64,000 nucleotides of DNA from Amia ocellicauda (lineage: Eukaryota; Chordata; Actinopteri; Amiiformes; Amiidae): positions 4,316,501-4,380,500 of the forward strand of contig NC_089855.1 of the NCBI RefSeq assembly GCF_036373705.1, read 5' to 3'. Shown in pieces: positions 1 to 62,547 of the stretch (the first letter of the stretch is position 1; every line of letters starts with the position of its first letter). The notes beneath the pieces are model-generated. The model searched no databases. It saw nothing but the letters and a program-made list of their open reading frames with translations, and had not been told where the DNA came from. Both the position numbers and the translations under genes were made by a program.

Positions 1-255
1 AATGACGGCTCCTCACGCTGCTGTAGTTTACGGAGTATACTGGTCATGCTACCAGACACTGCTTCCCAGTTCATAATACGAGAACAACAAGTAATGCTAA
101 CAGTTTAGTGACAACAATTTAGAAAAACAACCTCTTGAGTTGAAAAAGCAACAAAACCCAAATTCAGCACTCTGGGTCAATAACTCTGGAGCTCTGCTAG
201 CTACAAACACAAACCATACAATCAGTGTTCATCTACCTTGGGTTTGATTCGGGAC
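1..255. repeat. Upstream block of the tandem unit (copy 0, partial)
   Basis: This stretch closely matches 42650-42990 and more loosely 21890-22090 and 60730-60880. In those places it lies upstream of a minus-strand tyrosinase-like gene, so the window starts inside another unit of the same tandem array. The match ends near 255, where unrelated sequence begins. No coding region is seen. The gene it belonged to would lie before the window. Confidence 0.75.
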
Positions 256-1783
256 CCTCAAGAAAAAGGAGACGAGGGAAACGGAGGCTCAGAGGGACTG
301 CAACACAGATCGAGCTGGGGAAGTACAACTGCACAGCGCCAGTTGAACTATAATGCATGTACCTCGGCTCTCCTTTCTCCCAGCCGGTCTCCCTCCCGCA
401 GGCACAACGTCCCGGGCCCGGTCTCGCCACCAGCGCTGCTCAGCGTAAACCTCCCTTCGCCACTGATCCTGTAAAATAGGACAGACAGCGTCAGTCTCCA
501 ATAACTCCAGTGTCAAGTTATTCCCTTGCAGGTGAGCAGGAAAAGACTCCAGCCCGGCAGCCTACAGAAGCCACTTGATGCGTTCCGAATAAGTTGGAGA
601 TCAGTCCGAATACCCCAACCTATATGCACTCCATCCATATCAGTGTCTGCGGATCACATCAGTCATGCCGCTCACCCTGCACACTCGGGCTTGCTGCCAG
701 GGCCTGTCCTCCAGCTTGCTCTACTCCTCCCTCCTCTGAAAATGCACACTAGTTCATGGTCCGGAGCAGGGGGTGATTGTTTGAAGAGTGTTTGGCTGAT
801 TGCTCAGGAGGGGATCGTCCAATGAGGAGAGGTGTGTTGGAATGTGCACAGTGAATGCAAACGTGCTCAATGAAGGTAAAGGAACAGTAAAATACAAGAA
901 ATAAAGATACAATCATAGTTAAAACAACTAATAAGTGAAGGAAAAACAAAATAATAATGAAGCAAACCAGTACATTAAATAATCAATATAAAAGAACCCC
1001 ACCCCCCCACACACACACACTTCCCCACACACCCTGCAACACTATTGTGTGAAGTCAGAGCGAAGGCAGTATAACGTGTGCCTGCAATTGGTCTTCCTCT
1101 TGGTGTGGCTCTTGTGGAGAGCACCACACCAATCAGTGCCTCTGTTATGATCACTATGACACACCAACCCCAGCTGATCAGTGTGACAGGAACTTCATTA
1201 ACCCTGTTACTGAATGGCCACAGAGGACAAGGGCTACTCTAGACATGCAGGTACTGTGTAAGTACAAGGAGAGTTTAGTACATATGTTGTATTGTATGTG
1301 GGTTTCTTTATCATCATAAAACTATATCAGGAAGGGCAGAGGAAGACGGCAGAGAATTAGCCTGTGCGACCAGTGGCTTATTCGTTGGATTACAAATTGT
1401 CAAATAAATTGGACGAGACCCGAGGGTCCAGTGTGGAGGAAATTGGCAGAGCAAAGCGACGGCGAGAGGCTCAGAGGAGGCTGGTACTGAACCCTGGTTA
1501 CATGTGTGGTTATAGGATTAAAACAGAGGATGGATACGATTGTTAAGACCGCTTTATTGAAAAAGGACGAGTGTTGCGGATCCGGAATTGTATCGCCTTC
1601 TTTCTCCTCTGCCGGAGAGACTGGGCGACGGGGTTGCTGCTGTGACTGTACCTGACAGAGAGAGAGACAGACAGACAGACAGTCAGTAATAAGTTGTGTT
1701 CTTGCATGTTTGCACAGAGACTCTTGTGATCTACATCGTGTACCAGGACATGTTCACTTTGCTTTATTTTGTACAAAGACTTA
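256..1783. other. Intergenic sequence without recognised gene
   Basis: I see no gene here. 256-540 is GC-rich, with overlapping short open frames on both strands that look like chance. A short CA-rich tract lies near 1000-1020. The rest has no similarity to anything else noticed in the window and is probably old repeat sequence. Confidence 0.5.
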
Positions 1784-2680
1784 TGTAGCGCCCCCCTCTT
1801 TTTAAAAACACCCCTTCTAGCAGAGGTAAACCAAGGATAACCCCCTCGGTTATTGCTATACTTAAATTGACTCTTAAATAAACAATTAAGTACATTAACG
1901 ACTACGCCAATTTGGAGCTAATATAACTCCAAATAAATAACAGGTTCTTTGAAAATCAAGACAGCACAGGGTGTGAAGTGAGGACAGGCTTAGTATAAAA
2001 CACAAAACTTTTATTTAAATAAAATCACAACTTTTACCTATAGCAGCAGAGTTGATAGCAACAACTGTTAAATTATAGCAGCAGATGTTTAACCAAGAGC
2101 GATTATATCAGACCCTGAGCACTAGGATACCTTAAATACTGTCACCCCACACTTCTAAATGAAAAAGTAGTTCACAACAAAATAACACTTTTAAATAACA
2201 GCCTCCAGAACCAATAGTGACTTCCACAAACAGAATCCCAACCGAGAAAATAACACACAAACTAATGCATCGGTGAGAAACAAAACCTAATAAAAGTAAA
2301 AAGATACCTAATGCTCAAACACTCCTATAGCGGCTACTTTAGTTAATACACAAGTTAATAAAATGCAACTGTGCAATCAACAGTTAACGGGACTTTTACA
2401 ACTATACATTGTAAGCACATACACAATTGCCATTAGAATAATGAGGACAAAGACCCTACTCTAAAAGTCTAAAGCAAACAGGGATTCAAATTTAAAGGGA
2501 CAGTGCAACAGTAAAAATAATCAAAATCACAATAAAACTCGATCTCATTACATTCAAACAAATAAATAATACGTCCATTGCACATCCGTTACACTTATCT
2601 TCTGATCTTTTGCTTGCAGGACTCCGACTTGCTTGTCCTTTGCAGACATCATTGGTGAAGCCAATGGTTTTGTGGCTACA
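1784..2680 (-). mobile_element. Possible degraded LTR (minus orientation)
   Basis: Read on the minus strand, the segment starts TGTAGCC and ends GGCGCTACA, so it has the TG...CA ends of an LTR. It holds an AATAAA-type signal in its last third. Its end resembles the minus-strand end of the better supported LTR at 31897-35407 (GTCGCTACA). No target-site duplication is visible at these borders, so the call is tentative. Confidence 0.3.
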
Positions 2681-4093
2681 GTGGCGGCGTGCGCTTACCT
2701 GCGGGGCCCGTGTGCTCCCAGCTGCGGGGATACATTGAGAGATTGAGTTTAGGAATAGTAGAGGACTTTTAGCATATCTATATTTTCTTAGTCATTTTCT
2801 ATTTTTCTATTACTTTGGTGAGTGTTTCAGGATTTTAACTTGCCCTGCTTTATTAAAGGCATTTAAGTTAGTTTTAGGATTAATAGTATTATTATTATTA
2901 CAGTTCCAACTATTATAATTCTGTGTGATAGTGATTGTAACATTCTGTGTAGGTGGTACTGAGTAGACTTCGTGCCCGGTATCAGTTATAAATAGTGTAA
3001 AAATCACACTTGTACCTACCTGACTCACCCGTGTGGTGGTGCCTCGGGGTCTGTCGAGCTGCTCGGGGAGAGAAATACTATTGGGTGCAACGAGCTCTTC
3101 CCTCGGGTGAAAGGAACTAACCTCGCAGAGCCTCACACTTCCCAGTGTCGCGGGTCCAGCTGCCCTAGGAAGACACTGTGAGACACGGAAGGTCAAAGCG
3201 CATCCTGGACCCTCGGCACTCTGGGATTTAGTGTTTTAAACTGGAGGCTGAAATACCGCTAACATTGAAGCGCAATAAACTTTGAGCTGAAATGTTTTCA
3301 CGATATCTAACACAGTCTTATAGTATAAGTTATACCAGATATTCAAAAGTAGAAACCGGGGAACATTGAAACAATAATTAAAACAAATGATATCACTTAA
3401 AATGTAATTTAGTTTATTTAGTTTACCAGCGCATCGTAAATAACCGTGTTACTTCTCCCTGTATCATGATCCGATTAACACTGACAATATAGCTTAATTT
3501 AAGTATCCAGATATTCTCCCTTATTATTTATCTGTGGGCAAATGAACTGCGTTGCATTATTAAATACAGTGCGCTGGGTTTAAATCTGTCCCGTGTCCCG
3601 TGTATATATCATGAAATACACAGTATGACATTCATGGACAGCATCTTAAGCAAAACTCATACATGTGTGTAGCGTAAGGTACACTTATACATTTCAGTTA
3701 AAAGAAGTGAATTTACAGTATCACCATATCAAGAATCCTGGAATCTTGTAGAACTCCATTTCTGCAATAATTGGATGCATACACCAATTCCAAAGATATA
3801 AATTCTCAAATTTATTAAAAACAAAGATAAAATGTAGCACTACACTAGTTATACAAAAAGGGAAAAACTAATTAAAATTCACTCAAGATCAACAAATCAA
3901 AGACAAATCATTTCTGTGACCAAATCAAAGACCATATGATAACACACGAATCGTTAAACAAAAAAGGTTATAAACACATTAACTACAGTACCGCTTAGTA
4001 AGACGAAGGTGAGTCTCTCATTAGTATTATTAGTCAGACATCAAATAACTACGCAGGTTAGTATTTATGTCAGGTAACTTCTCGTTATATATA
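2681..4093. other. AT-rich intergenic sequence
   Basis: No gene is recognised. A 128-codon minus-strand frame at 2810-3196 has no recognisable motif and an asparagine-rich tail made by an (AAT)n tract, so I treat it as chance. The stretch 3760-4090 is AT-rich and was interrupted by the Tc1 insertion that follows. Confidence 0.5.
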
Positions 4094-14517: not shown

Positions 14518-14923
14518 TTGTTGAGACTGGAAGGCTTGAATGGCTTTCAGTGTCTTTATACTAGAGCCCCATCATCCAAATTACTGTCAGTACAGAAACC
14601 TGTACAGTGATCTGCAGTGCGCATGACATGCTGCACCGCCGAGCCAGGATAAGAATGGCAGAACATGAAGCCAAAGGCATGAGCGACTGATTTGCTTTAT
14701 TGTAGGTAAATTACATACTGGCATTTGTTGTCATATTAAGCTGCAAGGAGACCATCAGTAACCTCTATCAGCTCTACTGTAATTTAATAATTACTACTGA
14801 TCCTACTCTACAGACTCATATATAGTGGAAACCATCATTGGGGCAGGATGGTACACTGAGCCACAAGCCTGTTTCCATTTCAATGCTGAGCTGATGTCAA
14901 ATCACTGACCGCTGGGTGTGGTT
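14518..14923 (-). promoter_or_regulatory. Shared 3' flank of tyrosinase-like copy A, with poly(A) signal
   Basis: Downstream of the copy A stop, the minus strand carries AATAAA (14696-14701), 223 bp past the stop codon. The same context is found after copies B (36364-36369) and C (45352-45357). The block further down (14518-14640) is also shared with 36210-36330 and with 44928-45015 plus 45263-45340. This conserved 3' flank supports the view that the genes really end in exon 4. Confidence 0.7.
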
Positions 14924-17900
14924 TTATTCATAGGAGTAGCCCAGGTCCAACATTTGCAATTTAAAGAAATAATCATTGTGTCTCAGAGGAAAGAAAGGAC
15001 CCATGTAGGAGTTTGGCCTCTGTGCTTTAGGGATTATGGTATCATTTGGATATTGAGCACCAGGATGGGTCTGCAACCAGTCCTATAGGATCCTACAGGA
15101 GAGACAACAGCTGGTTAGAGACGTGCTGATGTGGCTTTGCATATTTCCTCTGCAGACTTGTTTGTTTAATCTTAAAAACAAACACAAAAAAACAAAATAC
15201 ATGAAATGTTCAAAATACACAAAATGCATGGGGCAAAAAAGCCAACGTAAATACAATTAATCTGACAATGCAAGTAAACAAAGTACGACTAGCAGGTGAT
15301 ACTGAGCTCTTGGAAGTGATCTAGAGGTGCAGCTCATTGAGTCCTGTGTACAGGTGTGTGCAGCTCATTGGGTCCTGTGTACAGGTGTGTGGCTCCAGCC
15401 CTGCGGAGACATAGCTGCTGCACTGGGAGGCTGGGTGTTTTCCTGTCTCACTGTCAGTCAAAGTGAGTGCGTGAGTGTCAACCTCAACCATTATTGTCTA
15501 CATAAAATACATTGATTTACTTAGCTTTTAACTGCTAAATCTAATGTGGGTTTCTAATCAAACCACTTCTATACACATTCCCTTTTATGGGATATTAATA
15601 GATTACAAAGATATAACTATATATGTATACCTTAAATATTTTAGCAATGTATGACATGTATATAAAACATTACAATATATGAATCTTGCACATGGGATAT
15701 GAGTGAAATGAATAGTTAAGATACATGTCGGGCCCCTTTTATTGAGCCTGTTATACGCACTTGTCAATGAAGGCATGGTGCACCATGAATATGGGGTCAT
15801 TCACAGCGATGGGAACACTGGACACTGTTCCATTCATGTAATTATGGACCAGGCTGTGCATGGAGGATTTGAGATTCCTGCTGTCCCATGGGATGCCAAA
15901 CCCTGAGAAAACACACAGTTGTGAAGGAGGCCTGCTTACCCTGTCATGTTATCTAATGTATGGGGTACTGTGAGCTGTACCGTTAACGTTTCTCTGCTCT
16001 ATTACAACAAATTAAGTTAAAGCCAATATAGGCTATACATACATTTTATATATACAGTCACCCTTGATAAAGATTAGCAAGAAAGTCTATATTCAGTAAA
16101 CACAGGTAATCAGCTATATTGTTTTTGCCAACATGTGGAACATATTGTACTTTATGATTCAAGGGAATCAACCAAATGCTTATACTGAAAATGTACACAG
16201 CTCCAGTTAGGTCAAATCTTGAAAACAGCATGAGTTTCTAGTCTCTTATCAGGAAAGACCAGAGAAAAGCAGGAGAACAAGGGACAGAGTGAGGGAATTA
16301 TTAGATATGAGAGATTGTTTTTACCCTCTAGCTTGTTCCTGAAGCTGTTTTGGGCACTTCTATCGTACGGGTGCTTGTTGAACTCCTTGGTTTCCAGAGT
16401 GTAATTGACGTCAGAGGCAGTCAGCAGCAGCTGTGTAGATATACCTTTACTTGGGTTGCGTTTTATAGGCTGCAGTGTTGTGTCCGTGTCCGGTGATAGG
16501 CATATTCCATGAGGTATAGTGTCATACGTGCAGATAGTTTGAAGGACAGAAAGACAGAGACAGATTACAGGCAGATTTGTGCTCAGCAGCTCATGGCAAC
16601 CCTGGGATCAGGGGTGCTTAAACAGGTCTAAAGGTCATGATAGCACAACCCAACCATTGTAATTATGATAGGCAGCCTAATCAAACCATTGTTACATTAT
16701 TTCATTTCACAATGTATGTGTTTTGATTGAGGGGGCACTGCTTCTGCGGTAGTTTGCCACTTGCCAGGCAGCAGCTTTTTGCTGTACCCCCTTGAGTGTC
16801 CCCTGGCTGCACGCTCTGATGTTTCCTTTTTAACATTGAAAAAAGGTTGCAATTATCTTTTGTTCTTTTTACTACTGAATTTACTTTATAATCCATACGG
16901 TCTCGATGGAAGCAAATTTAGCAATGTCAAATTTTTTGTGTGAAAAAATTGTTTAAAAAAAATAAAAATAAAAAATGCTGAATTGAATTGTGCCATGTGT
17001 CCGGTCTATAGCTAGTCTAGCATTGTCTACTTCTCTGCTGCATGCATGTCAGTAGCTAGCTAAAACTTGTAGGGAAAACTGAAAGTACAAGTCTGGTGCC
17101 CAAAAATGTAAGGAGCTAGACAAGAAAAAGTGTAATTTCCTCATGTATCTCAATAACAAGTTATTTCTCACAACTTAAAGCTTAAATATGCAACGCTCAA
17201 ATAGGCGTATGCCTTTATCTGGTTGTCTTGTTGAAATGGTGGCTATATTATGCAAAATTGTAGCCTATATTGTTCACTGCCAAAAAATATCGGTTGTTGT
17301 GGCATGATCTATTCAGTTGGGTGCTACAGCAACATTCCCTGTTGTTGGTGCTGAAAAAACTGCATAAAATATGGCAGGTTTTCTTTTTTGAACATATAGA
17401 CCTGCTTGATTCAATATACAGCGATAGTAATGCTTATTAGTAACCCTCACTCTGGGTCCAGATTGTTGGACAGGTAGCAGACCTATAGCACACACTGGTT
17501 ATTAGTGGCAGATTTCTAACAATTCAAATACTTAAAACCCTCTGAGCCCCCCCCCCCCCATTTTCACCTGATTTTACTATTGTCATATTTTTGCTTATAA
17601 CTCTGTAACTACAAGGGCTAAAGGCAACTATCTTATATGGAGACACTCAGCACAAACTGGAGATTCAGAATATAGAGAATTAACTCTGCCCCACCAGAGT
17701 TAATACAGATTTCAAAAAAATGAAAAAAACAAAAGCACTTATAAGGAAAAAAATGAATTTATTGTCAATATAACTCTTTTTTAGTGCTCCAGGCAGACTT
17801 TTGACACTGAACAGTGAAACTTAAATGTCTTAAGAAATTGCGTAAAAAATAAAAACTCAAATATGACCTCCAGAACAGAAATTACAGCCATTTATATTAA

Positions 17901-19471
17901 ACTAGCAACAACTGGAATAACTATATACAAGTAAAAAAGAATACTAAACTGGGAAACAGAATTCCAAACATTTGGCTTTTGAATATTGTCACTTTAGGCA
18001 TTACAGAGGCACAGGCTATTCTTTACAGCAGCTCCTGTCTATGTTGATGCAGTAACTCATCCCAGCCACCACGCTTGCCATGGCATTTTATTCTTGCACA
18101 GAGCACACTATAAGTGGCTTTCATAGTGCTGTAAACACACTCAGCATCTAGGATTTGTTTTTGAAAGGTAAGGCATTTTATATTTTGTGTCAGATTCAAT
18201 TTTTCTATGTTGTATTTGGTTTTCTTGCTGTATCGCATCTTTCTGCTCTGTCTGAGAATTGTGTCTATTCTGTATGATCCCTGCCTTCCATATGTGTGCT
18301 CTGTGAGCTCTCACACAAACATGCAGCTAAATGCAGCATAGCCTGCTCGGATTTGGTATCATTGGAAAGCTACAGCCCTGTCCTGTAAGTAAATGACAGA
18401 CCCGTTCACCAATGATGGACAGGATTTGGGGCCTCACCAAAAAAAAAAAAAAAAAAAACATACAGAACATACATCAAACAGAAGTATTTACAAGTTGCCA
18501 CAGAGAGACACAGGAGAGTACAGGTGAGAGGCAGCCATCTTGTGGTTTGACTAGTTTCAGACCAGTCTTGGCATTGCTCATTTTGTTTTAAGTTTGCCTT
18601 AATTGAAGTTAGCATTGTCTGAAGTTTGCATAAAAAACACGTGGTTAAAATCTTGGTGTAGAGAATAGGGTTTTAGGTTTATGGAGCATTGGTCTTTCTT
18701 CTGGGATAGATGTAGACCGTCCGGTTTGTACAGGTTCCATCTCAACAGAAGGGGGGCTAATGCATTAGGAGAGCGTATGTGCAGAATAGTATTTTTCCTG
18801 AGAGACGAGTTCAAATTCCCTTACCCATGCAGGATACAAGAATGTCTGAGACCCAAAAGTTGATCACAGACCTCAGAGAATCACCAACACATTTCTCTCT
18901 GCACATCAATGACCACATGGGAGAAAAATAAAATTGATTTAACTACGGCTTTGATGCATAATAGTGCAGCCAGATATAGAGATCATACACAGTGGCATTC
19001 TTAAATTTAATATTGCCTTCTATAGATGTGTCATTGCTCTCAAGGATGACATGTTTCACTGTTAGTGTGCTTTGCCTTCTGGAACATGTTAAACAATCTT
19101 TTCTTCTGGTGTCAGACTAGAGATCTCCTTCCTCACAATGCTATGGATCTCATTACAGTGTGGGCCCTTGAACCCGGGCTTGCACTGGCTGCAGTCAAAG
19201 CCATCAAAGTTTCTGTTGCACCTGCAAGCAGAGTCATAGAAGGCATGGGGCCAGTCCTCCCCGTAGTCTATGAATTCACCAGAGTCCTTTAAATGGTATG
19301 TATCACAGGCTCCCCTGCCATACTGTCTCCCACAAGGAGACCCCCCCACCACTCTGGGCAGCATGTCTTATTTGTCAATGCGTCAGGTGTGGTGCAGGTG
19401 CGGGGGAACTGAGCCTCCAGAGCCACTGGGAAGAGCAGGAGCAGCGCTGCCAAGAACAAACACAGCAGCAT
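14924..19471 (-). pseudogene. Tyrosinase-like copy A, pseudogene
   Basis: Four exons correspond to copies B and C. Exon 1 runs from 19471 to about 18945, exon 2 is 16325-16538, exon 3 is 15761-15902 and exon 4 is 14924-15092. The start keeps a signal peptide (MLLCLFLAALLLLFPVALEA) and the cysteine-rich region. Several defects are visible. There is a frameshift in the G-run near 19340-19350 and another near 19090. The last third of exon 1, with two of the three copper-A histidines, is deleted. The exon 2 acceptor reads AA instead of AG at 16539-16540. Codon 3 of exon 4 is TAG (15083-15085). Exon 3 is open and has HHAFID, but one CuB motif reads MHSLVH. It cannot encode an active enzyme. Confidence 0.93.
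16539..18940. other. Intron 1 of copy A with inserted repeats
   Basis: No complete gene is seen. A C-run lies at about 17550-17563 and an A-run at 18439-18458. On the minus strand at 18599-18814 a short frame contains LYKPDGLHLSQK. This resembles the C-terminal DxxH region of SGNH-hydrolase-like domains found in some fish LINE ORF1 proteins and is probably a small LINE fragment. The minus frame at 18023-18238 has no recognised motif. The end near 18905-18950 resembles intron 1 sequence of copy C next to the exon 1 deletion. Confidence 0.45.

Positions 19472-22946: not shown

Positions 22947-22948
<2 letters not shown>

Positions 22949-22985
<37 letters not shown>
22949..22985 (+). repeat. (CT)n microsatellite
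   Basis: About 35 bp of CT dinucleotides at the border between the tandem-unit block and the LINE 3' end that follows. A shorter CT run is at the same place in the copy B block (43185-43197). Confidence 0.95.
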
Positions 22986-41740: not shown

Positions 41741-41835
41741 TTTCCCGTTGCCGCTTTGCTATTTACATTTCTTAGTGCGCTTTTACATTTCGATGCCTGG
41801 TTCTGTATTTCTTTTTCTTTTTCAATGTGACAAAA

Positions 41836-42092: not shown

Positions 42093-43210
42093 GCATAGAT
42101 CATTGAAGGGCCTGTACCCATAATGTCTTTGTTTTCAGTAGTAATTCTTTGAATTAGTGCACCTAAACTGAAATAATGAATGTGTACATTTCACATTTTA
42201 CAAATTCATATTTCTATTTTATCAGCTAAACTTGCTTCACTTCTGGGAGATTTTACCATTTCACAGACTTTCTTGATGTATGTTTTCGTGCCTTTAATGT
42301 TCTGACTGCTGCAGTGAGGTGATGAGGTCGTGTTCTCAGTTTGAATTTCCCCTTCATCCTGAAGGGGCTTAGCGAGCCACTCTTCAGCACTGTTCCTCTT
42401 GGCAGTTTTAGTAATACTTGCACTGAGAGAATCTGGAAATGATTCTCACTTTCAGTCCTACACCACCAGGTGTATCCATCCTTGCTTGAGCTCTATAGGA
42501 AGATCATATGATGTGAATTAATTTGACATTTATATTGCAGGAAGTCAATTCAAAAACAATGTAAATAGTTGTTGTGTGTTGCAAGGTGTGTGGTCCTCAG
42601 GGTGTTGTGTGTCCTGGTTAGGTATACTAGTTGAGTTTGTACCCCAGTGCTGAATGATGGCTCCTCACGTTGTTGTAGTTAACGGAGTATACTGGTGTCA
42701 CTACCAGACACTGCTTCCCAGTTCATAATATGAGAAGAACAAGTAATGCTCACAATTCAGACAGTGATGATACTATTATTTAACCAAATTATCACTTAAC
42801 CATTGCACTCTCACTACAGTCAATAATAAATAAATGCTTTTTGTATTTTCAAACTTGAATGAACAATCTCTTCAGTAGAAAAAAAGCAGCAAAGCCCAAA
42901 TTCACCTGGGTGGGTCAAGGACTCTGGGACTAAAAACACAAACCATGCTATCAGTGTTTATCACCCTGGGGTTTGTTTGATTTGGGATTCCTGCTCCATG
43001 TGGAGCACTTTCAGCACTTGCACTGTCACTTATTAGTTATTGTTTATTGATTAATAAACCTTAATATGTCCAGTGGTAGAAGTGTCCCTGAAGACGTGCC
43101 CTGCTCACTGCCTGCACACTGTTGGCATTCAGTCACACCCAGGAGCAGAGCAGAACATAACCCTGCCCCCCCTGACACAGTGTGCTCTCTCTCTCTCATC
43201 ACAGTGTAGA

Positions 43211-44017: not shown

Positions 44018-44057
44018 TACATAAAATAGAGTAACATCTGACAGTGTATATTTGCAG

Positions 44058-44251
44058 GTCTCCTGTCCTGCTGTGTCTGTGCGAGTCCAGGAGACAATGT
44101 GACTGTCCACTGTGGCCTCACTGTGCCTCGTATTCACTGGTTCAGACAGCGTCCAGGTCAGCTGCCTCTGCTCATACTGCACTCCCTGTCAGCCAAGCAA
44201 ACACATGCCTGGTACTACAATGGCTTTGGAGATCATTATTCACTGTTATGA
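44058..44251 (+). pseudogene. Immunoglobulin V-type exon, 3'-truncated (unit C)
   Basis: After a TTTGCAG acceptor the frame, starting in phase 1, reads CASPGDNVTVHCGL and RIHWFRQRPGQLPLLIL: first V-domain cysteine, framework 2 tryptophan and a receptor-type RQRPGQ loop. Similarity to the unit B exon continues through NGFGD and then stops. A stop codon follows at 44249-44251. The second cysteine and J-like part, which survive in unit B, are missing here. The two broken copies together show what the ancestral exon contained. It is probably from a novel-immune-type-receptor-like gene, but CD8-, TCR- or CD300-like origins cannot be excluded. Confidence 0.75.
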
Positions 44252-45585: not shown

Positions 45586-48500
45586 TTATTCATAGGAGTA
45601 GCCCAGGTCTAACACTTTCAAATTGAAGTAATTGTCATTGTGTCTCAGAGGGAAGAAAGCAGTCATGTAGGAGTTTGGCCTCTGTGCTTTAGGGATGTTG
45701 GTATCATTTGGATAGTGAGCATCTTGATGGGTCTCCAGCCACATTTCTAGAATCCTGCAGGAGAGACAATAATTGATTAGACATCTTGGTGTGGCTTTTT
45801 TATTTCCCCATCAAGGAACAAGGACTTTGTTTAATCTGAACAAAAGCTTACAATGTTCAAAATAATAGACAAAATGCATGTGCACAAGAGCTAAATTAAA
45901 TAAAATTTATCTGAGAATGCAAGTAAACAAAGTATAACTGTAGTGGCTGAAACAGCTCTTCAGATAAACAGAAGTAATCTAGAGGTGCAGCTCATGGAGA
46001 CCTGTGTACAGGTGAGTGCAGCTCATGGAGTCCTGAGGTCACAATACTACAGAACCTTATTTAGTTGGTTTAGGTCGTGGTGCTACTCACCAGGTGGAAT
46101 AGTCCGACTACAACACCCACCAGTGACATATATAATATACAAGTCTTCTATATGGGATATATGTTGTGTCTTACGCACTTGTCAACAAAGGCATGGTGTA
46201 CGAGGAATATGGGGTCATTCGCAGCGATGGGAACGTGGGAAATGGTTCCATTGAGGTAATCGTGGATCAGGTTATGCATGGAGCTGTTGAGATGCCTGTT
46301 GTTCTGTGGGACGTCAAACCCTGAGAAAAGACACAGCTGTGACTACCATGTGTACTGTCCTGTTGTTTCTCATGTAGGGCACACTGTATATATAAACAAA
46401 CATGGAAACAATATGTTTTGAGATGTTGCAAATACGTTGAAACTGATATGTTGACTGATATGTAATTGCAGTGTGTGTAGAAAAGCCCATACGTTCCACC
46501 TTTTCTGTCATTAATATTGTATTAAAAATCACCCCTTAGCTTATCAGTGTGGTCACAGTATATATATACTTATATATATATAAGGGCTGGGCGATATGTA
46601 ATTTTATTTTAATCGATAATCGCCTTAGAAAACATCGCGATATCTGATAATATTGTCTATTCCACACGGACTCCACCAACCCGCCCGCGTGCAGGCCATC
46701 GCGACGTCAAATTCTTCCCGGCAAAAAAATTCGCAATATTATGGTTTTAAACCAAATGCAAATGGTGAACTAGACAACAGAGCTATCTGCAGGCTGTGCA
46801 AGAAAAAAGTAAAGGTTAAAGATGCACAGACCACTAATCTCCTTAGCCACATCCAAATACACCATCCAGCAGTAGCGGCCTCATTTGAACCCCGCTCCGC
46901 AGCCGGACGATGACACCTTACATGTCAATTACTGCTCATCACATAGACAAAGACTGGGTCCTACTATCCAACTGCTTGGGAACCATTTCCGTGCCTGAGA
47001 GCCACACTGCAGATTATGTGGCGGACAGTCTCTTGGAAAGTGTTAAAGAATGGCGCGTCGAAGAAAGAAAAATGTCATGTGTCACCACAGACAATGGAGC
47101 TAATGTTGTTGCAGCCATACGGCAGCTAAATTGGCCATGGCTTAACTGTTTTGGGCATAATTTGAATGTCGCCATAAACCATTCACTACAGAAGGAGAAG
47201 GCCAGCACAGACCGAGCATTTGTTGTATGCCGGGCCATTAATGGGGCTCTCGAAGAGTTGGCACCGAAGACATGAACTCGTGAAAGCGCATGAGGAGCTC
47301 AGCATCCCCCATCACTCTCTCGTTACAGTAAGCTAACCATTATAGACTATTCAATTTTAAATACAATATATTTTACGATCATTATTATTTTATATTATTT
47401 TGGAAACATTTTATAAAAAGGTTTAATTAGTTAACATGAAATAATAATGAACAATACTTATACAGCATGTATTAATCTTTGTTAATGTTAATTTCAACAT
47501 TTACTAATACATTATTAACCTCTGGGGACGGAAAAATCGTGCGTAACTTACATAATATTAAATATATTTTAAACCATTTGAGATAAAAGAAATCGGTTTT
47601 TTACCTGTGTAGCTGAGATTCCGCTGAAAACAGCCATGTGCGGTTTGTTTACATCGCGTACTTCCCGGTTTTAGAAATCCCGTACGCAATGAGGCTGGCA
47701 TTGCCCAATGGAGAAGCTGTTACTATAGATAACACATGACTTCTAGAGCTGCCAATCTAGCCAATCGAAAAAATCCTTTCTGATCGGCTGCATAGATCAC
47801 CCGATAAGGGCCGGTGTTCTGACAAACTGAGCTACTGGACAGAATTAGCTTCCTAACGAAAGTGCGCAATTAACAATTTCAAAACACGCCCATAAACCTG
47901 GGCTACCTGCGGGTAGCTCATCTTGATTGCGCAGGTCAATTTGTCAGGTTAATTTGACCATTTGAGCTGCCTTTCAGGATGTGCTGCTTTCTGATATCGC
48001 GCCTGCGTAGTGACCACATTACACGCTGTTAAATCCGAGCTGTTATTGACGGCAAGTTTTCAATATGCCACAGACTTCCTTATAGAACATAATTAAATTT
48101 TTGAAGTATTTCCTTCTTTAATCACTTTAGAATTTCAGATATTTGGCTGGTTTGCAGTGGATAGGAACATAACTTGCATTTGCTTTTAATTTACAGAAAT
48201 CAATGGTCTTATCAGATAAGCGTAACTTTAACCTTTTAGTACTTTGTGGTAATTAATAATACCCGATTCATTCAAAATGTAAAAATGCATAATAAAAATA
48301 TGCATAGACACTACAGACCTCAAGTGTAGCCTGTGTGTAGCCTTTGAATGCTGTACATTTTACATGACGAGTTAAAATACATGTTCTAAAAAACAGGTCG
48401 ACATGGAAGGTAGATACGATTAAGTATAGAGGAATACAGCAAGGCACAGAAGCAATTCTTAAGACGACATGCTTCAAAACTTACCATTTCAAGTAAGTAA

Positions 48501-54902: not shown

Positions 54903-57875
54903 CAAGTCTAGGCTAAGTAATGAGTTATAATGTAAACAGTTCAAACTACTCGGTCGATTAAAATAAAAGTGTGTAGCTGGTAAATTTGCTATTGTTTGTT
55001 CTTGTACTAAGAATGATTGAAGTCTGAAATTTAACGGTATGCATTTTACACGTGGAAATTGCATTGTGAACGGGACCATAACTTTATTAATTATCCGAAT
55101 TTTGCATTAAAACGATATAAATTTAACCGAAGCAAGTTTCCATTCAAATCAGCGCATTTTAATACGAGACCGGTTATTTACTATGCAATCCGAAATGCAG
55201 TTATATTGAGCTGAGCAGTACAATCACAAATGCCGGCGTTAGAGGTAAAAACTGGGCCGATGCACAAATGAAAGCGCTGTTACAATGTGGATGAAGATGC
55301 AGTTAAAACACAAACCGCAGCAGCGCAGCGCTGCTGTCTGACACTATAGACGCGTCACAGAGGCTGCTTTCCATGCACACGATTGTGTACTAATGCACAC
55401 GATTTATTGTGATTTAATGCTGATGTCCTAATAAAGTTGCTTCGCTTTCGGGTGGATGGTATAACAGCACTTTAGACTTGCAGAACCGAAGATAGACATT
55501 TTAAAAGCGAAATATATTAATTAGATTACCCATTGAAACAGCACAATTTTTAATTATTTTAGAAAGCTTCGGCTGCAAAGGGTTAATATTACTTTCAAAT
55601 AAAATATAGAACTGAACAATAGCCAATCGATATTAGTAGGTTGTGATTATAAACACATCGCACACACCTGTAACAGACCGCATGTCCTGCGTCACTGGTC
55701 TGTTTGAGCAGGTGTGTTTATTCCCGGCATGCATTTCGTTTAGGCCGCCTTTTCGCCCGCATATGTGACGCACTGAGGCTCCTAAACCCGCAAGTGTGAA
55801 CGGGGTGTCTGAGAAAAACCGGACTAAATTTGAGCCTAATAGGAGCTGATTGAGTATCTCGTGTTAATTGTCGGCATAGCGTAGTCGGAAGGTGTAGAAT
55901 AATTGATTACAGCTGGCTTGTGTGTCTGGTCGGCAACAGTCCTGCACAATAAACCAGTCCTTAATGTTTCAGAGGAAACCCAGATCTGCTGTATTTATTT
56001 ATTCATTGAACTTGTAAATGGACACGTTAACTGAATCGTGTTCGCCTTCATACTGACTGTCTCTGTGGGGCTGTTATACAACAGACCTACAAACTATTCA
56101 CAGGACAACAGCCTGAAACACCGTCCAGTTCATCAAATATGAATATCGGCTGCTACGGCTCCGATTATTATCCTTCAGTTTATTTTAATGCCGGGGTCAC
56201 TACACGATTTCTACAATCCGACTCGATTTTGTGCACAGTGCGCAGTTCACACTTAACCACTATTTTGCACCGAATGTGTGTCTTCTGCGTCGTGAAGCAG
56301 CGCTTCTGTGCAGACACGCACACTTCACGACTGATCTGCGGACAGCCTCCACATCTCGCAGAAACACGCTGATCCACACAGAGAAAAGGTCAACAGACAC
56401 GGACGTGCACACGTACAGGTCACGTCTGTTTAGCACAGATCTGCGCTGCTCCGCCAATGGGATCAGTGGATTTCTGCAGATCTGCGCAAAACTGCGGAAA
56501 AAACGCCACCACTCGCCGCTGCTGCTGTTTCTGTTCGTCTGTGCAGACAAACACAAAAAGCGTATAGTATTTTAAAATAACCTGCCCCGAAACAACCATT
56601 GGTATTTGAAGTATTTTAATAAATACGTATGAAAATCTTCTTCTCCTGTCATGTTTATTCTTCTGTTTCTTTTCTCTTCTTCAGTCAGCTCGGCTCTCAT
56701 TGGCTGCTGATGACGTCACTTTCCACGGTCGGCGCCGTTCGAGTCGTAAATATGAAACATGTTTAATAAACTGAGCGGCTCCGACCAGCTCACGATCAGA
56801 TCAGCCCGTCTCTCACTGCACGGCCATCGGCGGCGACGCGCCCGACCAGCTGCCTGTCGAGACGATCAGTGCCGATCTGTCGTGAGGGCCAAATCGGTCT
56901 CAAATCGGGCTTAAAATCGTGTAGTGTGACCCCGGCATAAGCCAGGTTAAATGCGGAAACGGGGCATAACACCTGTGGTCAATTATAGACCACAGACACA
57001 TTTGTCTTTGCCCTCATACAAGACAACAACCACATGGGAGAAAAATTAAATAATGATTAATCTGAAGGACATTAGAGTTAGATTCAAACTCTGGGAGCTC
57101 CTACCTTCCACTCAGAGAAGAGCGAGTCGTTGTGTATGTGTCCGTGTTCATCACTCACTCCGAAGTAGTCATTGGTGCAGATGTTGCAGTGATTTGTCTT
57201 GGTCCAGTCCCAGTAGGGGATGAAGAAGGAGTCATCATCCGTCAGCTCCCTGATCTCACGCTCAATGAACAGCAGGAACACTCTGTGCCAGAAGGGGAAG
57301 GCTGGGCCCTGATGGGCAGCATTCCTCGTAGAGTTGCGGTACGGCTTTGCTGCGTAATAGTGCAGCCAGATATAGTGATCATACACAGTGGCGTTCTTAA
57401 ATTCATAGTTGCCTTCTATAGATGTGTCATTGCTCTCGAGGATGACATATTTTTCACTGTTAGTGCGCTTTGCCTTCTCCAACGCAGTAAAGAACCTGGA
57501 CTTCTCTTCTGCAGTCAGACTAGTGATCTCCTTCCTCACAACGCTATGGATCTCATTACAGTGTGGGCCCTTGAACCCAGGCTTGCACTGGCTGCAGTCG
57601 AAACCATCAAAGTTTATGTTGCACCTGCATGCAGAGTCGTAGAAGGCATGGGGCCAGTCCTCTCGGTAGTCTATGTATGCATTGGACATTAGACTGTAGG
57701 TAGCACACAATCCCCGGCCAGCCCTGTAACCACAACGAGACCCCTGCCAGTCTGGGCAGCATGTGCGTGTTTCCAAGGCTTCTGGTGTGGTGCAGACGCG
57801 AGGGAATTGAGCTTCCAGAGCTGCTGGGAAGAGCAGCAGCAGCAGGGCTGACAAAGATAAACACGGCAGCAGCAT
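45586..57875 (-). CDS. Tyrosinase-like copper oxidase, secreted form (copy C)
   Basis: Four exons, 57105-57875, 52314-52527, 46179-46320 and 45586-45754, join in frame to about 431 residues, with GT/AG borders and the same intron phases as copy B. The product has a signal peptide ([20 protein letters not shown]), then the cysteine-rich region ([19 protein letters not shown]). The copper-A histidines are in [15 protein letters not shown] and PFWHRVF. The copper-B histidines are in [13 protein letters not shown] and LVHHAFVD. All six ligands are present. It ends DLGYSYE with no membrane anchor, so a secreted or luminal enzyme is predicted. Compared with B it has [18 protein letters not shown] and other scattered changes but no damage. 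Introns 1 and 2 are 4.6 and 6.0 kb long because of transposon insertions. The exon 2 acceptor tract is a CT microsatellite. Confidence 0.92.
46583..47330 (+). mobile_element. hAT (ZBED-type) transposon remnant
   Basis: The start AGGGCTGGGCGATATG is a typical hAT end. 46653-46913 encodes a BED zinc finger ([14 protein letters not shown], then [10 protein letters not shown]). 46910-47275 encodes part of the hAT catalytic domain ([20 protein letters not shown], then [12 protein letters not shown]). The region between them and the C-terminal dimerisation domain are missing and the frames differ. It is inside intron 2 of copy C. No right end is found. Confidence 0.85.
47811..49706. mobile_element. 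1.9-kb element with 23-bp inverted ends and subterminal repeats
   Basis: The first 23 bp (CCGGTGTTCTGACAAACTGA...) and the last 23 bp are inverted complements with one mismatch. Within about 170 bp of each end, variants of CTGACAATCTGAGCTACC recur in both orientations, at least eight in total. No transposase is recognisable; the longest inner frames are about 60-70 codons. Clusters of repeated subterminal motifs are transposase-binding sites in several DNA-transposon families. I cannot assign the family. Confidence 0.7.
49985..52133 (+). mobile_element. Tc1-like transposon interrupted by a hAT element
   Basis: The left end has TCAAAAGTTTACATACCCTT and the right end its inverse (GGGTATGCAAACTTTTGA). 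The plus strand has [13 protein letters not shown] with the second catalytic aspartate just before the insertion (around 50195-50250). After it, WPSHSPDLN and [11 protein letters not shown] follow, where the usual catalytic glutamate position reads lysine (NIIKPLW). The N-terminal part and first aspartate are deleted. Without the 1402-bp hAT insertion it would be about 750 bp. Confidence 0.88.
50256..51657. mobile_element. Non-autonomous hAT element with perfect 8-bp target duplication
   Basis: The element starts CAGGGCCGTA and ends TACGGCCTTG. CCTCCAGT flanks both sides (50248-50255 and 51658-51665), exactly the 8-bp duplication of hAT transposons. It lies inside the coding part of a Tc1 element. 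No hAT transposase is seen in its 1402 bp. Its middle (about 50540-50945) resembles the transposon at 39732-40433 in inverse orientation. Confidence 0.92.
52529..52562 (+). repeat. (GA)n microsatellite at the exon 2 acceptor of copy C
   Basis: On the minus strand this is a run of CT that directly precedes the CAG acceptor of exon 2 of copy C (52527) and forms its pyrimidine tract. Copies A and B lack the run. Confidence 0.92.
52800..54360. other. Intron 1 sequence of copy C, unassigned
   Basis: No gene is recognised. The frames at 52794-53230 (plus) and 53643-53978 (minus) have no motif. Poly(A)-like signals at about 53193 and 54269 may be from old retroelements. Confidence 0.45.
54530..54746 (+). 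repeat. Minisatellite of AAACACAGAGTAAACACACA-type units
   Basis: About 217 bp made of irregularly alternating blocks AAACACAGAGT, AAACACACAAT and AACACACAATG. All three minus-strand frames are open across it and give long [11 protein letters not shown]-type repeats, which are an artefact of a unit free of stops, not a gene. Confidence 0.95.
54852..54898 (+). repeat. (TA)n microsatellite
   Basis: About 47 bp of alternating AT. Confidence 0.98.
56189..56937. mobile_element. Harbinger-like MITE with TAA target duplication
   Basis: The ends TGCCGGGGTCACTACACG and its near-perfect inverse (CGTGTAGTGTGACCCCGGCA) enclose 749 bp. TAA lies on both sides (56186-56188 and 56938-56940), which fits the 3-bp TWA duplication of PIF/Harbinger elements. 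Open frames on both strands inside carry no known domain. It lies in intron 1 of copy C. Confidence 0.65.
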
Positions 57876-57970: not shown

Positions 57971-58528
57971 GAAAATACACAGAGATGGGTGGGGTTTGTT
58001 TGGGACATTTAAAAGTCTGTTAAACATTATATAGTTCACAAGTGGGAGTTATTTTTAGTTAAAACGGATGATTTCCCAGAAGAGGTGCATCGATTTAAAA
58101 AAAAATAAACGGGATGAATTCTTCCCACATAATGTGGTTTTGACATATTTAATACTGTACATAAACCCCCAGTTCAGACCTGGCAAATGCATTTCAATTT
58201 AAATACAATTTTTAGTGTTTTCACTTGCAAATTCTCAACCAGAGACTCTCTAATTGATATTAATTGGGTAATTTCAATTGCTTTGTGATTACAGTACATC
58301 TGGGCTAATAATCAATTAAACTGTACTAATCTTTGTGCCGACTAACCCACTTCAGATCATCAAAGGGCCTGTAGCCATGATTTCTCTCTGTTTTTAGTAG
58401 TGTTTCAGTACATTTCTTTGAATTAGTGCCCCATAGGGTATGATAGGGCAAGTTTTTATACTTTCTTCCAAACTGAAATAATGAATTAATCGATTGTACA
58501 TCAACATTTTACAAATTTGTATTATTTC

Positions 58529-58744
58529 GGTAAGGTGCTGTGATTCCTCATGAATTAATATATGAATACCATAGGATTTAAACATCAATACCTCATGATC
58601 ATCATCTGAGCACATGAACCTGCACTTACCCTAACCCTGTTATACAAGTGAATAACATAAAAACTCAGATGAAGTACGTGACATCTGATGTTTTCATCCT
58701 GGGGTATTCATATAGTAATCAATGAGGAATTACAGCACCTTACC
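58529..58744. mobile_element. Palindromic MITE
   Basis: The 216-bp segment begins GGTAAGGTGCTGTGATTCCT and ends with its near-perfect inverse (AGGAATTACAGCACCTTACC). The inverted similarity extends over about 40 bp from each end. It is non-coding. It interrupts the tandem-unit block, which continues uninterrupted at the same point in copy A (21430-21470). Confidence 0.8.
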
Positions 58745-58929
58745 ACATTATAAAGTATGACCATTCCCGTTAATTGTGACTAATTCGTCAATTGTTGAAT
58801 TGTTGTCACATCTAAGGCAATATGGTAGGTGTTGGTTACCCTGCTACTACTGCTACTGGTAAGGATAGCTGCTTTCTCCTGGTGCGTGTGTGTGTGTGCA
58901 TGTGCATGTGTGTGCATATGTTTTGCTTG

Positions 58930-59265
58930 GTGAACTAAAACGTGATCATACTTAAACTTGCATTCTTAAACTTTTTTCTTTGTATATTTATGAATAGTTT
59001 AGAATTGTTCGAACACTTTATTGAATTTGTGTGAAGCACTTCAAATGTATTTGTATTTTGTTTTTTCAGCATGTTTTCTTAGGAGCAGTGATCCTTTGAA
59101 CTTTTGCAATGCACACCATTGCTACATAGATTGTAACCAGCAAACATTGTATTATTTGTTTTATGTGTACTTTGTAATAAGGATTCAGCCTAGCTGATAT
59201 AGGGCAGAAAACACACTTTATGCACATTCTTGTTAAATTATTCCATTCAGTTGGAAGGGATCTAA
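58930..59265 (+). repeat. Repeat shared with 8930-9375
   Basis: Same order of matching words as at 8930-9375, in the same orientation, with small insertions. No coding potential. Confidence 0.7.
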
Positions 59266-59462
59266 GTGGGTATTGTAAAGTACATTATTTATTTACTCTG
59301 AGTTCACTTTGATCCTGGGACCATTAAAGGGTGGTGTACTCAACTCAACTATATAGTACCAGGTGTAGGAGCCAAGTAGTTTATTTGCCTGTGTTATTAT
59401 TTAGAATAAATATTGTTGGGGTAAAATTGCCCTCTATGTATTGTATATACCCACTGTATAAC

Positions 59463-59960
59463 TGTTAGAAAATATAAGAAACTTTCCAGTAAGTTACTAG
59501 TTAGGTTTTAATAGGATTTCTTTGTTTGTATTATGTTTTCTCTGCTCAAATTTATCTGCGGCAGGTGGAAACAATTTCTGCTTTGAGTAGCGAACTGAAA
59601 TTATCTATAACACGTTCTTATTAGTACAGCGTGTGTTTGGTACCAGCGCTTCCATGTCTGGACTAATTACAAAGAAAACCTTATGAATTATTGCTTCCCA
59701 TGTCTCAGAACTGCCCCGGGACATATGCCAAGAAAATATCATCCAGGTTCGGGACGGCCCCGAAACTCCTTTGAAATACTGCTTGTAGATGTATAAAAGG
59801 CTGTGTGAAACTTTCAATAAACTGAAGATAAACGAACAGACTTCGGTGTCTGGCTTTTCCTTCCCGACTCTCCTGCTGAGGGTCTCCACTGTTGCTGAAG
59901 CGCTCACTGGGGTGCCTGATTCACTGGGGAATCTGAAGGGTTGCTTCAACTGTACCTTAA
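59463..59960 (+). mobile_element. LTR-like segment
   Basis: TATAAAA at 59792-59798 is followed closely by AATAAA at 59816-59821 and then a GC-richer stretch, an arrangement of an LTR with a short R region. It lies within an insertion in the copy C upstream block (unit A lacks it). The exact ends and target duplication were not identified, so borders are approximate. Confidence 0.4.
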
Positions 59961-61144
59961 CAAATATATTTTATTCTGTATTTGTCTGTTATGCATTGTA
60001 TCAGTTGTACTGGGTTTCTTTAAGAGAGCAAGCTTTTTGTATGTTCCATGGCTTATACGCATACATATACATTTTAAATTAACTGTCATTTATATTCAGT
60101 TAGTTTAGCTATGGAGCCTCACGGTTTTCTGACCATGTCCTAACACCTGCGATAATTTATGAAATCGATTTGTTAACTGTATTATGATTACAATCAAAAT
60201 CCTGTAAATATTGAACCAGTGGAAACTGGAATAAATGTTTTATTTGCATTATTTACTGCAGAGTCTGTGTGGATAATGCCCACGCTAACTCAAAAAAAGC
60301 TGCTTCTACACCAGGTGTCGCATATGTTAAATGAAATAATTGCATCACTTTTGGGAGATGTTTTACCATTTCACAGATGTTACTGATGTAGGTTTTCATG
60401 CCTTTAATTTTCTGACTGCTGCAGTGAGGTGATGAGGGCATTTTTCTTCAGTGCTGTTTCTTATTTATTTATTTTGCAATATTTTGACTGGAAGAATCTG
60501 GAAATTATTCTCTTTGGGACCTAAAGCACCAGGTGTAATCTGCTATGCTTGCGCTGTTTAGGAAGATCATATGATGTGTAATTAATTTGATCAAATTAAG
60601 TGAATGAAAAAATTATGTCAATACTTGTTTCAAGGCTCTTGCCCAAGTTGTGCCTCTGTGTGTTGCAAGGTGTGTGGTCCTCTGGGTGTTGTGCACTGTA
60701 TTGTGTGTCCTGGTTAGGTATACTATTTGAGTTTCTACTCCTGTACTGTCAATAAGTAATACATGCTTTTTGTGTTTTCTAACTTTTAAACAAACAGCCT
60801 CTTGTGTTTGAAGAAAGCCGCGCAGCCCAAATTCAGCCAGGCAGGTCAATGACTCTGGGACTAAAAACACAAATGTTGATTTAGTGACTGGGCTTTAATC
60901 ACTTGTTATCACTATTTTAATATTATTATTGTAACACTTGCACTCATTATTATATTATTGTGTTTTTCTTTATTGGTTTTTCACTAGTGTTCAATGGTTT
61001 GCACATGTGTTTTATTATTCACTTTAATATTCTCTTTAATAATTATTCTCACATTTCTCCTGCTGATTGTTTTACCTGCACCCCCCACCTGTAGACAAAG
61101 ACTTGCCGGCTGACAGGCAGTCCGAGGTCCGGACTTGTTATTTT

Positions 61145-61850
61145 CTTCTAAGCTAGTTCTGACATAGTCTGGAGATATGTTTTCGGTCATTATCTTGCTG
61201 TAGGATGAACCCCTGACCAACTAGGCGTATACTAGAGGGTATTACATGGCGTTGCAAAATGCTGTGGTAACCGTTTTGGTTCAGGATGCCACTCACTGTG
61301 TAAGTCGCTGACTCTGGATCCAGCAAAAGAGCCCCAGACCATCACCTCCTCCATGTTTGACAGTTGGTGTCACACACTGAGGAACAAATCCTCTCACCTA
61401 CTCGACCGCTTACAAAAACCCTGTGTAATGAACCAAAGATTTCAAATTTTGATTCACCGGTCCATAAGACCTTCTTCCAGTCTTCAGTAGTTCACAGGTG
61501 GTGCCTCATGGCCCAGGCAAGCCTCTTTTTCTTATTTTGTCATCTTTGCAATGGCTTTCTTACTACCACTCAACCTGTAGCTCGAAGTCTTCTCTTCACA
61601 GTTGAATCTGAGACTTGCTTACTTCGACCAGTGTTAAGCTGTGCTTGAAGCTAATGTCCTGTGAGCCCCCTATCACACAAGCTGTTGACTCTCAGAAACT
61701 TGTCTTCTGATTCTGTTGTGGCTTTGGGTCTGCCAGACCTTTTCCTGTCAGAGTTTAAACCAGTTTCCAAGTGTCTTTTGACGGTGTAGGAATCTGTACT
61801 AATTGACACCTTGGCTTTCTTTGTAATTTCTCTAAAATAAATACCTACAC
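61145..61850 (-). mobile_element. Decayed Tc1-like transposon
   Basis: The minus strand has scattered remains of a Tc1 transposase in several frames, among them a GESKFEIFGS region around the first catalytic position (61440-61470) and a segment equivalent to the QQDN box near 61185. Frameshifts and stops are frequent. The terminal repeats are not clear. Confidence 0.75.
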
Positions 61851-61907
61851 TTTAAAGGGTTATAATGGTCTGTCTGTCTTCCTTTGTTAATTGCCTTTAT
61901 GTATGGT

Positions 61908-62045
61908 GAAAAAATAAAACGGCGGCTGTGAGATTTGCAGCGGCTGCGACATTTGGAAGTGCTGAAAAAATAAAGCAGGCTGCGACATTTGCAGCGACTT
62001 TGAGATTTGGAAGTACTGAAAAAATAAAGCAGCTGCTGCAGCATT
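61908..62045 (+). repeat. Minisatellite with ~55-bp unit
   Basis: About 2.5 copies of a unit marked by GAAAAAATAAA at 61908, 61964 and 62018 and by GCTGCGACATTTG-type words between. The open frame of 78 codons over it (Ala/Lys-rich) is likely chance. Confidence 0.85.
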
Positions 62046-62547
62046 TTAAGAAGCAATTACGGAAAGGGAGGGTACATTGTAAAATACATTTGACTTATGC
62101 CATCGGACAACAAGCAAGTCACGTCGTCCAAACCTGCTTCTCTGGAAGAGTCAACAGAATTTGAGAAAGGGGAGCCAACTGCACAGTGCAAAAAGTATTT
62201 ATATTAATATTTTTGTGATCTTCTGCTCTCTATCCACTTTGTGGTGACATATTAATAGAGTTATAGGGCTGTCCTAAAATGTATTAGTAGAGCACTTTCA
62301 ACACCTCCACTGTCACACATCCAGACCAGCACAGAGCCTACAGGGCCAGCTCTCTCTGGTGTCTGTTTGTCAGTGTCATGGAGGGTTATGTTTAAAGATC
62401 AACTGAAGAGAATTTCATAAAAATATATATTAACAGGAAAACACTAGTACCTTTTAGTATTAAGAATATGTAGCCCCCCGAAAAAGCTCACAGTGAAGAA
62501 GTAAGAAAGACTGGAATGCTGTCATACTGTCTCCATAAGTTAATGAA

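What the first reader, a model, noticed from the sequence alone, without database searches (positions are those of the whole stretch)
1..62547. Tandem array of tyrosinase-like genes interleaved with Ig V-type receptor fragments
The sequence shows four copies of an upstream block, three tyrosinase-like genes in the same orientation, three copies of their 3' flank and two Ig V-type exon fragments between them, with a period of about 18-21 kb. A gene for a secreted copper oxidase duplicated together with an immune-type receptor gene is unusual. The oxidase copies survive (two intact) while the receptor copies decay, which suggests selection for oxidase dosage or diversity. That last point is inference.
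Basis: partly seen in the sequence, partly recalled or inferred. Interest (0 to 1): 0.85.

Follow-up and report, generated by a model that had tools for sequence, protein, structure and literature searches.

The report
Bowfin cluster of secreted tyrosinase genes
A bowfin chromosome carries a row of duplicated genes for an apparently secreted, copper-binding tyrosinase that forms its own branch beside the three known vertebrate pigment enzymes, with look-alikes in sharks, other fishes and amphibians; what it does is not known.

Summary
The window (bowfin Amia ocellicauda, C6:4316501-4380500) holds three minus-strand tyrosinase genes 18.5-19.9 kb apart and two plus-strand Ig V fragments. A fourth tyrosinase copy (D0) lies just left, and two more Ig V copies right, of the window. 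Copies B (437 aa) and C (431 aa) are intact; A and D0 are pseudogenes. In exon 4 and 3' flank D0/B and A/C are sister pairs that alternate along the chromosome, so a two-gene block was probably duplicated. The Ig pieces look like relics of an NITR-like receptor gene, probably incidental.

The larger point is what the oxidase is. It is not tyr, tyrp1 or dct, which this genome carries elsewhere. It falls in a separate, strongly supported branch, here called TYRL, with elasmobranch, ray-finned and amphibian members. 106 of 120 TYRL rows keep all six copper histidines; only 13, all fish-list rows, show a C-terminal membrane stretch. So the bowfin proteins are most likely secreted phenol/catechol oxidases. 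Same-contig copies recur in 16 other species. My paper searches listed no description of this branch. Activity, expression and role are untested.

The parts
38559..39341 (-). TYRL copy B, exon 1 (signal-like N-terminus, Cys-rich/EGF-like part, CuA)
   Evidence: Gene model; spliced product identical to P0001 (NCBI 'tyrosinase', A. ocellicauda)
37922..38138 (-). TYRL copy B, exon 2
   Evidence: GT-AG
37383..37524 (-). TYRL copy B, exon 3 (CuB)
   Evidence: GT-AG
36571..36742 (-). TYRL copy B, exon 4 with stop right after DLGYSY(GL); no membrane-anchor exon found
57105..57875 (-). TYRL copy C, exon 1
   Evidence: GT-AG, 431 aa product, length; A. calva P0002 identical over 369 aa
52314..52527 (-). 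TYRL copy C, exon 2
46179..46320 (-). TYRL copy C, exon 3 (CuB)
45586..45754 (-). TYRL copy C, exon 4 with stop after DLGYSYE
14923..19471 (-). TYRL copy A, pseudogene (ends approximate): exon 1 frame-broken and cut short, stop in exon 4
1..249 (.). End of the upstream block of copy D0 (gene itself outside the window, about -6.2 to -1.9 kb, pseudogene)
21158..22960 (.). Upstream block of copy A (in pieces)
41296..43197 (.). Upstream block of copy B (in pieces)
57993..60873 (.). Upstream block of copy C (in pieces)
31237..31439 (+). Ig V-type fragment (NITR-like V relic), 90% identical in protein over its 52-residue main part to the whole V exon at 97.2 kb
44051..44245 (+). Ig V-type fragment (5' half of V exon), 89% identical in protein over 54 residues to the 97.2 kb exon

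Best explanation
The window holds most of a four-gene tandem array of one tyrosinase paralogue, TYRL, in the bowfin Amia ocellicauda; two copies (B, C) are intact and two (A, D0) dead. The array most likely grew in two steps: one gene became an X-Y pair, and then the roughly 40 kb X-Y block was duplicated (D0-A, B-C); much of exon 1 was later made alike between copies, probably by gene conversion. TYRL is a jawed-vertebrate branch of the type-3 copper tyrosinase family, distinct from TYR, TYRP1 and DCT. The bowfin proteins have a signal-like N-terminus, the Cys-rich/EGF-like part, both copper sites and a stop where the membrane anchor of TYR would follow, so they should be exported and act outside the cell. 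Shown: gene structures, copper ligands, missing anchor, branch. Inferred: secretion and oxidation of tyrosine or catechols to quinones that cross-link or melanise extracellular material (mucus, skin secretions, egg coats or capsules). The tissue role is open. The Ig V pieces are relics of a neighbouring NITR-like receptor family caught up in rearrangements and are not part of the oxidase's function.
Against: No expression or activity data. 13 of the 32 ray-finned-list TYRL rows (11 named acanthomorphs, 2 unnamed) do have a membrane stretch, so secretion is not universal in TYRL. Pairwise identity of amphibian TYRL to bowfin TYRL (about 41-43%) is hardly above that to pike TYR (about 42%), so their common branch rests on the trees. 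Whether TYRL is sister to TYR or branches deeper is unsettled (AU p 0.11, 0.0062, 0.209). Position S360 of TYR is Y in B and varies in TYRL. dN/dS of 0.55 (0.80 in exon 4) is relaxed, so one copy may be drifting.
Confidence: 0.7

Rival explanations
1. B and C are merely lineage duplicates of ordinary pigment-cell tyrosinase that lost the membrane anchor, with no separate ancient branch.
For: Introns 1-3 fall at the same places as in human TYR (human places recalled); NCBI names B 'tyrosinase'; holding TYRL and TYR together is not rejected in two of three samplings (AU p 0.11, 0.209).
Against: Bowfin tyr is a separate locus, 67% identical to pike TYR but only 38-39% to bowfin and sturgeon TYRL in exon 1; elasmobranch, amphibian and fish TYRL form one branch at 100/99 and 100/100 while TYR of a ray, human, lamprey and teleosts groups apart.
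Confidence: 0.06
2. TYRL is a decaying or moonlighting family: the array is passive segmental duplication, and the surviving copies are under little selection or no longer oxidases.
For: Two of four copies dead; dN/dS 0.55 overall, 0.80 in exon 4; seven of 120 TYRL rows have substituted copper ligands, among them a salamander pair with full-length frames.
Against: All six copper His and intact splice sites in both B and C; dN/dS 0.36 in the CuA core; A. calva keeps C unchanged over 369 residues; branch kept in elasmobranchs, ray-finned fishes and amphibians.
Confidence: 0.16
3. Oxidase and Ig receptor were duplicated as one co-selected immune unit (extracellular melanising enzyme plus inhibitory receptor).
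For: Ig V relics lie about 1-5 kb from the 3' ends of C and B; B7-like V-set exons and an NITR-like V cluster (both names recalled) lie on the same chromosome.
Against: No Ig V match beside D0 or between D0 and A; Ig copies beyond C without an oxidase; only fragments inside the array; closest whole V exons about 33 and 382 kb beyond the window's right end.
Confidence: 0.07

Closest known systems
Vertebrate TYR (tyrosinase)
   Same: Ectodomain layout, both copper sites, E345/F347/N364/V377-type residues, three intron places (human intron places recalled)
   Different: 38-39% identity to bowfin tyr in exon 1; no exon 5, so no membrane anchor or sorting tail; separate branch; clustered copies
TYRP1 and DCT (tyrosinase-related proteins)
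   Different: TYRP1 rows have Y/R/T at the positions of TYR F347/S360/V377, B has F/Y/V and C has F/S/V; no anchor; tyrp1 and dct are separate loci in bowfin
Deuterostome 'tyr-like' group of PMC3334994 (passages read)
   Same: A tyrosinase lineage outside chordate TYR and TYRP
   Different: That paper says the group was lost in vertebrates and tunicates; identity with TYRL could not be tested because no amphioxus tyr-like row was in hand
Skate egg capsule catechol oxidase (Koob & Cox 1988, seen only as a title in the reference list of PMC4806620)
   Same: A phenol-oxidising enzyme of an egg capsule in an oviparous elasmobranch; skate TYRL (P0202) has all six copper His and no anchor-like tail
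   Different: No sequence link between the two is known to me
NITR (novel immune-type receptors of fishes; name recalled)
   Same: V-set exon with J-like FxxGTxLxV end; TM-like exon and ITIM/ITSM-like tail after the 97 kb V exon
   Different: Only fragments in the window; not tested against reference NITRs

Membership tests
Tyrosinase common central domain family (PF00264, type-3 copper) | Pfam match above cut-off | tested here: met
   B 64.1 bits, C 61.2 bits against cut-off 22.6, exon 1 alone
Tyrosinase common central domain family (PF00264, type-3 copper) | Six copper-ligand histidines | tested here: met
   Present in B and C; 106 of 120 TYRL rows
Tyrosinase common central domain family (PF00264, type-3 copper) | Fold | tested here: met
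TYR proper (melanosomal tyrosinase) | Groups with vertebrate TYR in a tree | tested here: not met
   TYRL rows form their own side of a branch, 100/99 and 100/100; a TYRL+TYR sister grouping is rejected in one of three samplings only
TYR proper (melanosomal tyrosinase) | C-terminal membrane anchor and cytoplasmic sorting tail | tested here: not met
   Stop right after DLGYSY in all four copies; no TM-exon match nearby
TYR proper (melanosomal tyrosinase) | Monophenolase/diphenolase activity | not testable with these tools
   Needs protein
TYRP1/DCT | Groups with TYRP1/DCT; Y-R-T (TYRP1) at 347/360/377 | tested here: not met
NITR (Ig V pieces) | V-set domain | tested here: met
   PF07686 48.8 bits for the whole copy at 97.2 kb; window pieces 89-90% identical to it, not scanned themselves
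NITR (Ig V pieces) | Groups with reference NITR sequences | not tested
   Distant matches to a V cluster at C6:0.85-2.8 Mb only

The most novel reading that the evidence does not exclude
Jawed vertebrates have a fourth, overlooked tyrosinase: an ancestrally secreted enzyme (TYRL), kept in elasmobranchs, ray-finned fishes and amphibians, not seen in amniotes here, and repeatedly multiplied on one chromosome. It tans or melanises material outside the cell, for example egg capsules or coats, mucus or skin secretions. If so, it could be the gene behind the skate egg capsule catechol oxidase and would give vertebrates an extracellular quinone chemistry thought typical of invertebrates; if it is the tyr-like lineage of PMC3334994, that paper's statement that the lineage was lost in vertebrates would need revision.
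Probability: 0.3. Interest if true: 0.85.

Novelty: new variant of a known kind. Interest (0 to 1): 0.62.

Why it matters
Vertebrate tyrosinases are usually described as a trio of membrane-bound melanosome enzymes (recalled). A fourth branch, mostly without the anchor, with copper sites intact and several copies on one chromosome in many amphibians and some fishes, points to an extracellular phenol-oxidase function that no paper in my searches describes. It makes an old question testable: which gene makes the catechol oxidase of elasmobranch egg capsules, and whether frogs, salamanders and fishes use the same chemistry in skin, mucus or eggs. The bowfin array, with two live and two dead copies in a small region, is a convenient place to study birth and death of the family.

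Tried and rejected
Reading the Ig V pieces as half of a duplicated unit: rejected because their copies do not track the oxidase copies.

A hidden exon 5 for a membrane anchor: searched with five acanthomorph TYRL tails and two TYR tails over the 184 kb; apart from exon 3-4 matches the best hit had E 0.067, so none was found.

First tree carried a mis-spliced C row and joined two long branches; it is superseded. Rows dropped after include Bufo P0185, Lissotriton P0111, Leptodactylus P0166 and ena P0188 (very long or odd branches) and several redundant rows. TYRL-like or unplaced hits left out of the 120-row count: P0032-P0035, P0037, P0038, P0046, P0049, P0055, P0060, P0074, P0110, P0114, P0119, P0214 (short, fused, odd or unlabelled) and P0195-P0196 (fused to another protein).

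A TYRL+TYR sister grouping is neither shown nor excluded (AU p 0.11, 0.0062, 0.209). Where the hemichordate tyr-like protein attaches could not be rooted; one search was drawn with it as outgroup. Two unnamed sheep hits (P0232, P0239) were checked as possible amniote TYRL and are nearest to TYRP1.

tRNA and Rfam scans of the window: nothing. Paper searches: ten in all; seven were on tyrosinases, the others on the species, NITRs and egg capsules. None of the listed titles was on a secreted or fourth vertebrate tyrosinase; searches matched 235 and 16,993 papers, of which 12 and 15 were listed. Of papers I read only passages: PMC3334994, PMC5984452, PMC12983459, PMC4806620.

Confidence in the best explanation was lowered from 0.72 to 0.70 because of the identity check, and that of the decay rival raised from 0.15 to 0.16.
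Full report
What the window is. The window is G000:C6:4316501-4380500 of a 988 Mb genome. Protein P0001, named tyrosinase of Amia ocellicauda (eyetail bowfin), is identical to the product of gene B and lies on a contig of 50,672,733 bases, the length of C6. So the window comes from a bowfin, a holostean fish.

The array. A tblastn scan of 184 kb around the window with a TYR bait gives four minus-strand genes: D0 (about -6.2 to -1.9 kb, outside the window), A (14.9-19.5 kb), B (36.6-39.3 kb) and C (45.6-57.9 kb). Exon 1 offsets are 21.2 kb (D0-A), 19.85 kb (A-B) and 18.5 kb (B-C). B and C have four coding exons, GT-AG introns and open frames of 437 and 431 residues. A has a broken and truncated exon 1 and a stop in exon 4; in D0 I found no start of exon 1 and no exon 3, and its frame is broken. 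In all four the coding region stops just after the motif DLGYSY, which is where the match to the solved ectodomain of TYRP1 ends.

History of the array. Segment by segment, exon 4 and the 3' flank pair D0 with B (94%, 87%) and A with C (85%, 89%), against 71-74% and 73-77% for the other combinations; exon 2 is less clear-cut (D0-B 86%, B-C 83%, D0-C 80%, A-C 76%, D0-A and A-B 71%) and exon 3, with three copies, shows no pairing (79-80%). In exon 1 B and C are 84% alike in the first part and 90-92% in the rest, where A-C is 90% and D0 is 89-92% to B and C. The pairs alternate along the chromosome, so I infer that one gene became an X-Y pair, that the pair was then duplicated as a block of about 40 kb (offsets D0-B 41.0 kb, A-C 38.4 kb in exon 1), and that much of exon 1 was later homogenised, most simply by gene conversion. 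This is inference from identities, not a formal recombination test. Between B and C dN is 0.161, dS 0.291, ratio 0.55 with bootstrap range 0.40-0.78; CuA core 0.36, exon 4 0.80. That shows constraint, partly relaxed. It does not show selection for dosage or diversity. An independent A. calva record, P0002, is identical to C over its 369 residues.

The Ig pieces. Two V-type fragments lie in the window on the plus strand at 31.3 and 44.1 kb. A third fragment is at 71.1 kb and a whole V exon at 97.2 kb, both right of the window. The whole copy matches V-set (48.8 bits) and is followed by a TM-like frame and a frame with ITIM/ITSM-like tyrosine motifs (motif names recalled, splicing not modelled). 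In the whole genome the next copies are C6:4762752 (90%) and two at 41-50%, then a V cluster at C6:0.85-2.8 Mb whose exons end in J-like FGNGT-type motifs in the ones printed, which I take for NITRs from recall. The Ig copies do not follow the oxidase copies in number or place, so I regard them as passengers.

Which oxidase it is. In this genome tyr is on C3 (67% to pike TYR in exon 1), tyrp1 on C19 (78-80% to Gymnothorax and Danio TYRP1) and dct at C6:26.96 Mb (65-78% to shark and frog DCT in two exons). The array gene is a fourth kind. Three homology searches (the first listed 120 of 145 hits) found relatives in other ray-finned fishes (Acipenser, Albula, Megalops, many acanthomorphs), in many frogs and salamanders, and in elasmobranchs (Mobula, Hemitrygon, Hypanus, Rhinoraja, Stegostoma, Hemiscyllium, Heptranchias, Scyliorhinus, Carcharodon). 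In trees with TYR, TYRP1, DCT, tunicate and amphioxus rows these form one branch: 27 of 27 rows, 100/99; 24 of 24 rows, 100/100 under a mixture and a homogeneous model. I call it TYRL. By plain identity amphibian TYRL is hardly nearer to bowfin TYRL (41-43%) than to pike TYR (42%), so the branch rests on the trees. Its place relative to TYR is unsettled: holding TYRL and TYR together gives AU p 0.11, 0.0062 and 0.209. I recognised no amniote TYRL in the three result lists; amniote hits carried DCT/TYRP2 names, or were unnamed and nearest to TYRP1 (P0232, P0239). The searches are word-limited, so loss in amniotes is a suggestion.

Copies elsewhere. Distances between them are unknown, and one of the proteins (P0184) is partial. 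So multiplication of TYRL on one chromosome is recurrent, and the bowfin array is one case.

Mechanism and role. The best-supported mechanism is a secreted type-3 copper oxidase that turns phenols or catechols into quinones outside the cell. Copper ligands, predicted fold and lack of anchor are shown; secretion, activity and substrate are inferred. A possible role is tanning or melanisation of egg capsules, egg coats, mucus or skin secretions. A skate egg capsule catechol oxidase is on record (Koob and Cox 1988, seen only as a title in the reference list of PMC4806620), and a skate TYRL (P0202) with all six histidines and no anchor-like tail exists; the link between them is a hypothesis.

Literature. 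[quoted passage not shown] TYRL may or may not be that group; I had no amphioxus tyr-like row to test it. None of seven searches on tyrosinases listed a paper describing TYRL (two of these lists were cut). The library lacks most subscription papers, and database records already call these proteins tyrosinase-like, so novelty lies in recognising the branch, not in the sequences.

Noticed in passing
window 4242-5282 (+) and about -3846 to -2617 (inverted, between exons 1 and 2 of D0): Open Tc1-type transposase frame (HTH_Tnp_Tc3_2, DDE_3) within a 1.2 kb stretch that has a 99.2% identical inverted copy just outside the window: recent transposition.
   Followed up: partly
window 10829-13955 (-): Frames that look like endonuclease and reverse transcriptase (the latter a Pfam match below cut-off, E 0.0066): probably a decayed LINE-type element.
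   Followed up: no
window 24364-27017 (+): Three plus-strand frames, one with an integrase core (rve), the other two without Pfam match; looks like remains of a large mobile element. Described only.
   Followed up: no
P0061 (Lissotriton), P0178 (Ambystoma): A salamander TYRL pair, 100/100 together, with full-length frames that lost several copper histidines: a possible conserved pseudoenzyme.
   Followed up: partly
L001 = around G000:C5:39986873-39987382: A 489-residue open frame with a distant tyrosinase domain (21-26% to the TYR family) and GYDxxGFD-type repeats: a different tyrosinase class in a vertebrate genome.
   Followed up: partly
G000:C6:0.85-2.8 Mb: Dense cluster of V exons with J-like ends, probably the bowfin NITR cluster (name recalled).
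   Followed up: partly
about -45.8, -41.0 and +80.3 kb from window start: B7-like (name recalled) V-set exons on both sides of the array; a ribosomal protein L16-type exon at about -17.9 kb could serve as a synteny marker.
   Followed up: partly
P0053, P0075, P0208: Three of nine fish and lamprey TYR-type proteins looked at have A in place of N364, next to a copper histidine.
   Followed up: no
about -9.9 to -7.9 kb: Minisatellite with a 39/78-base period left of D0.
   Followed up: no
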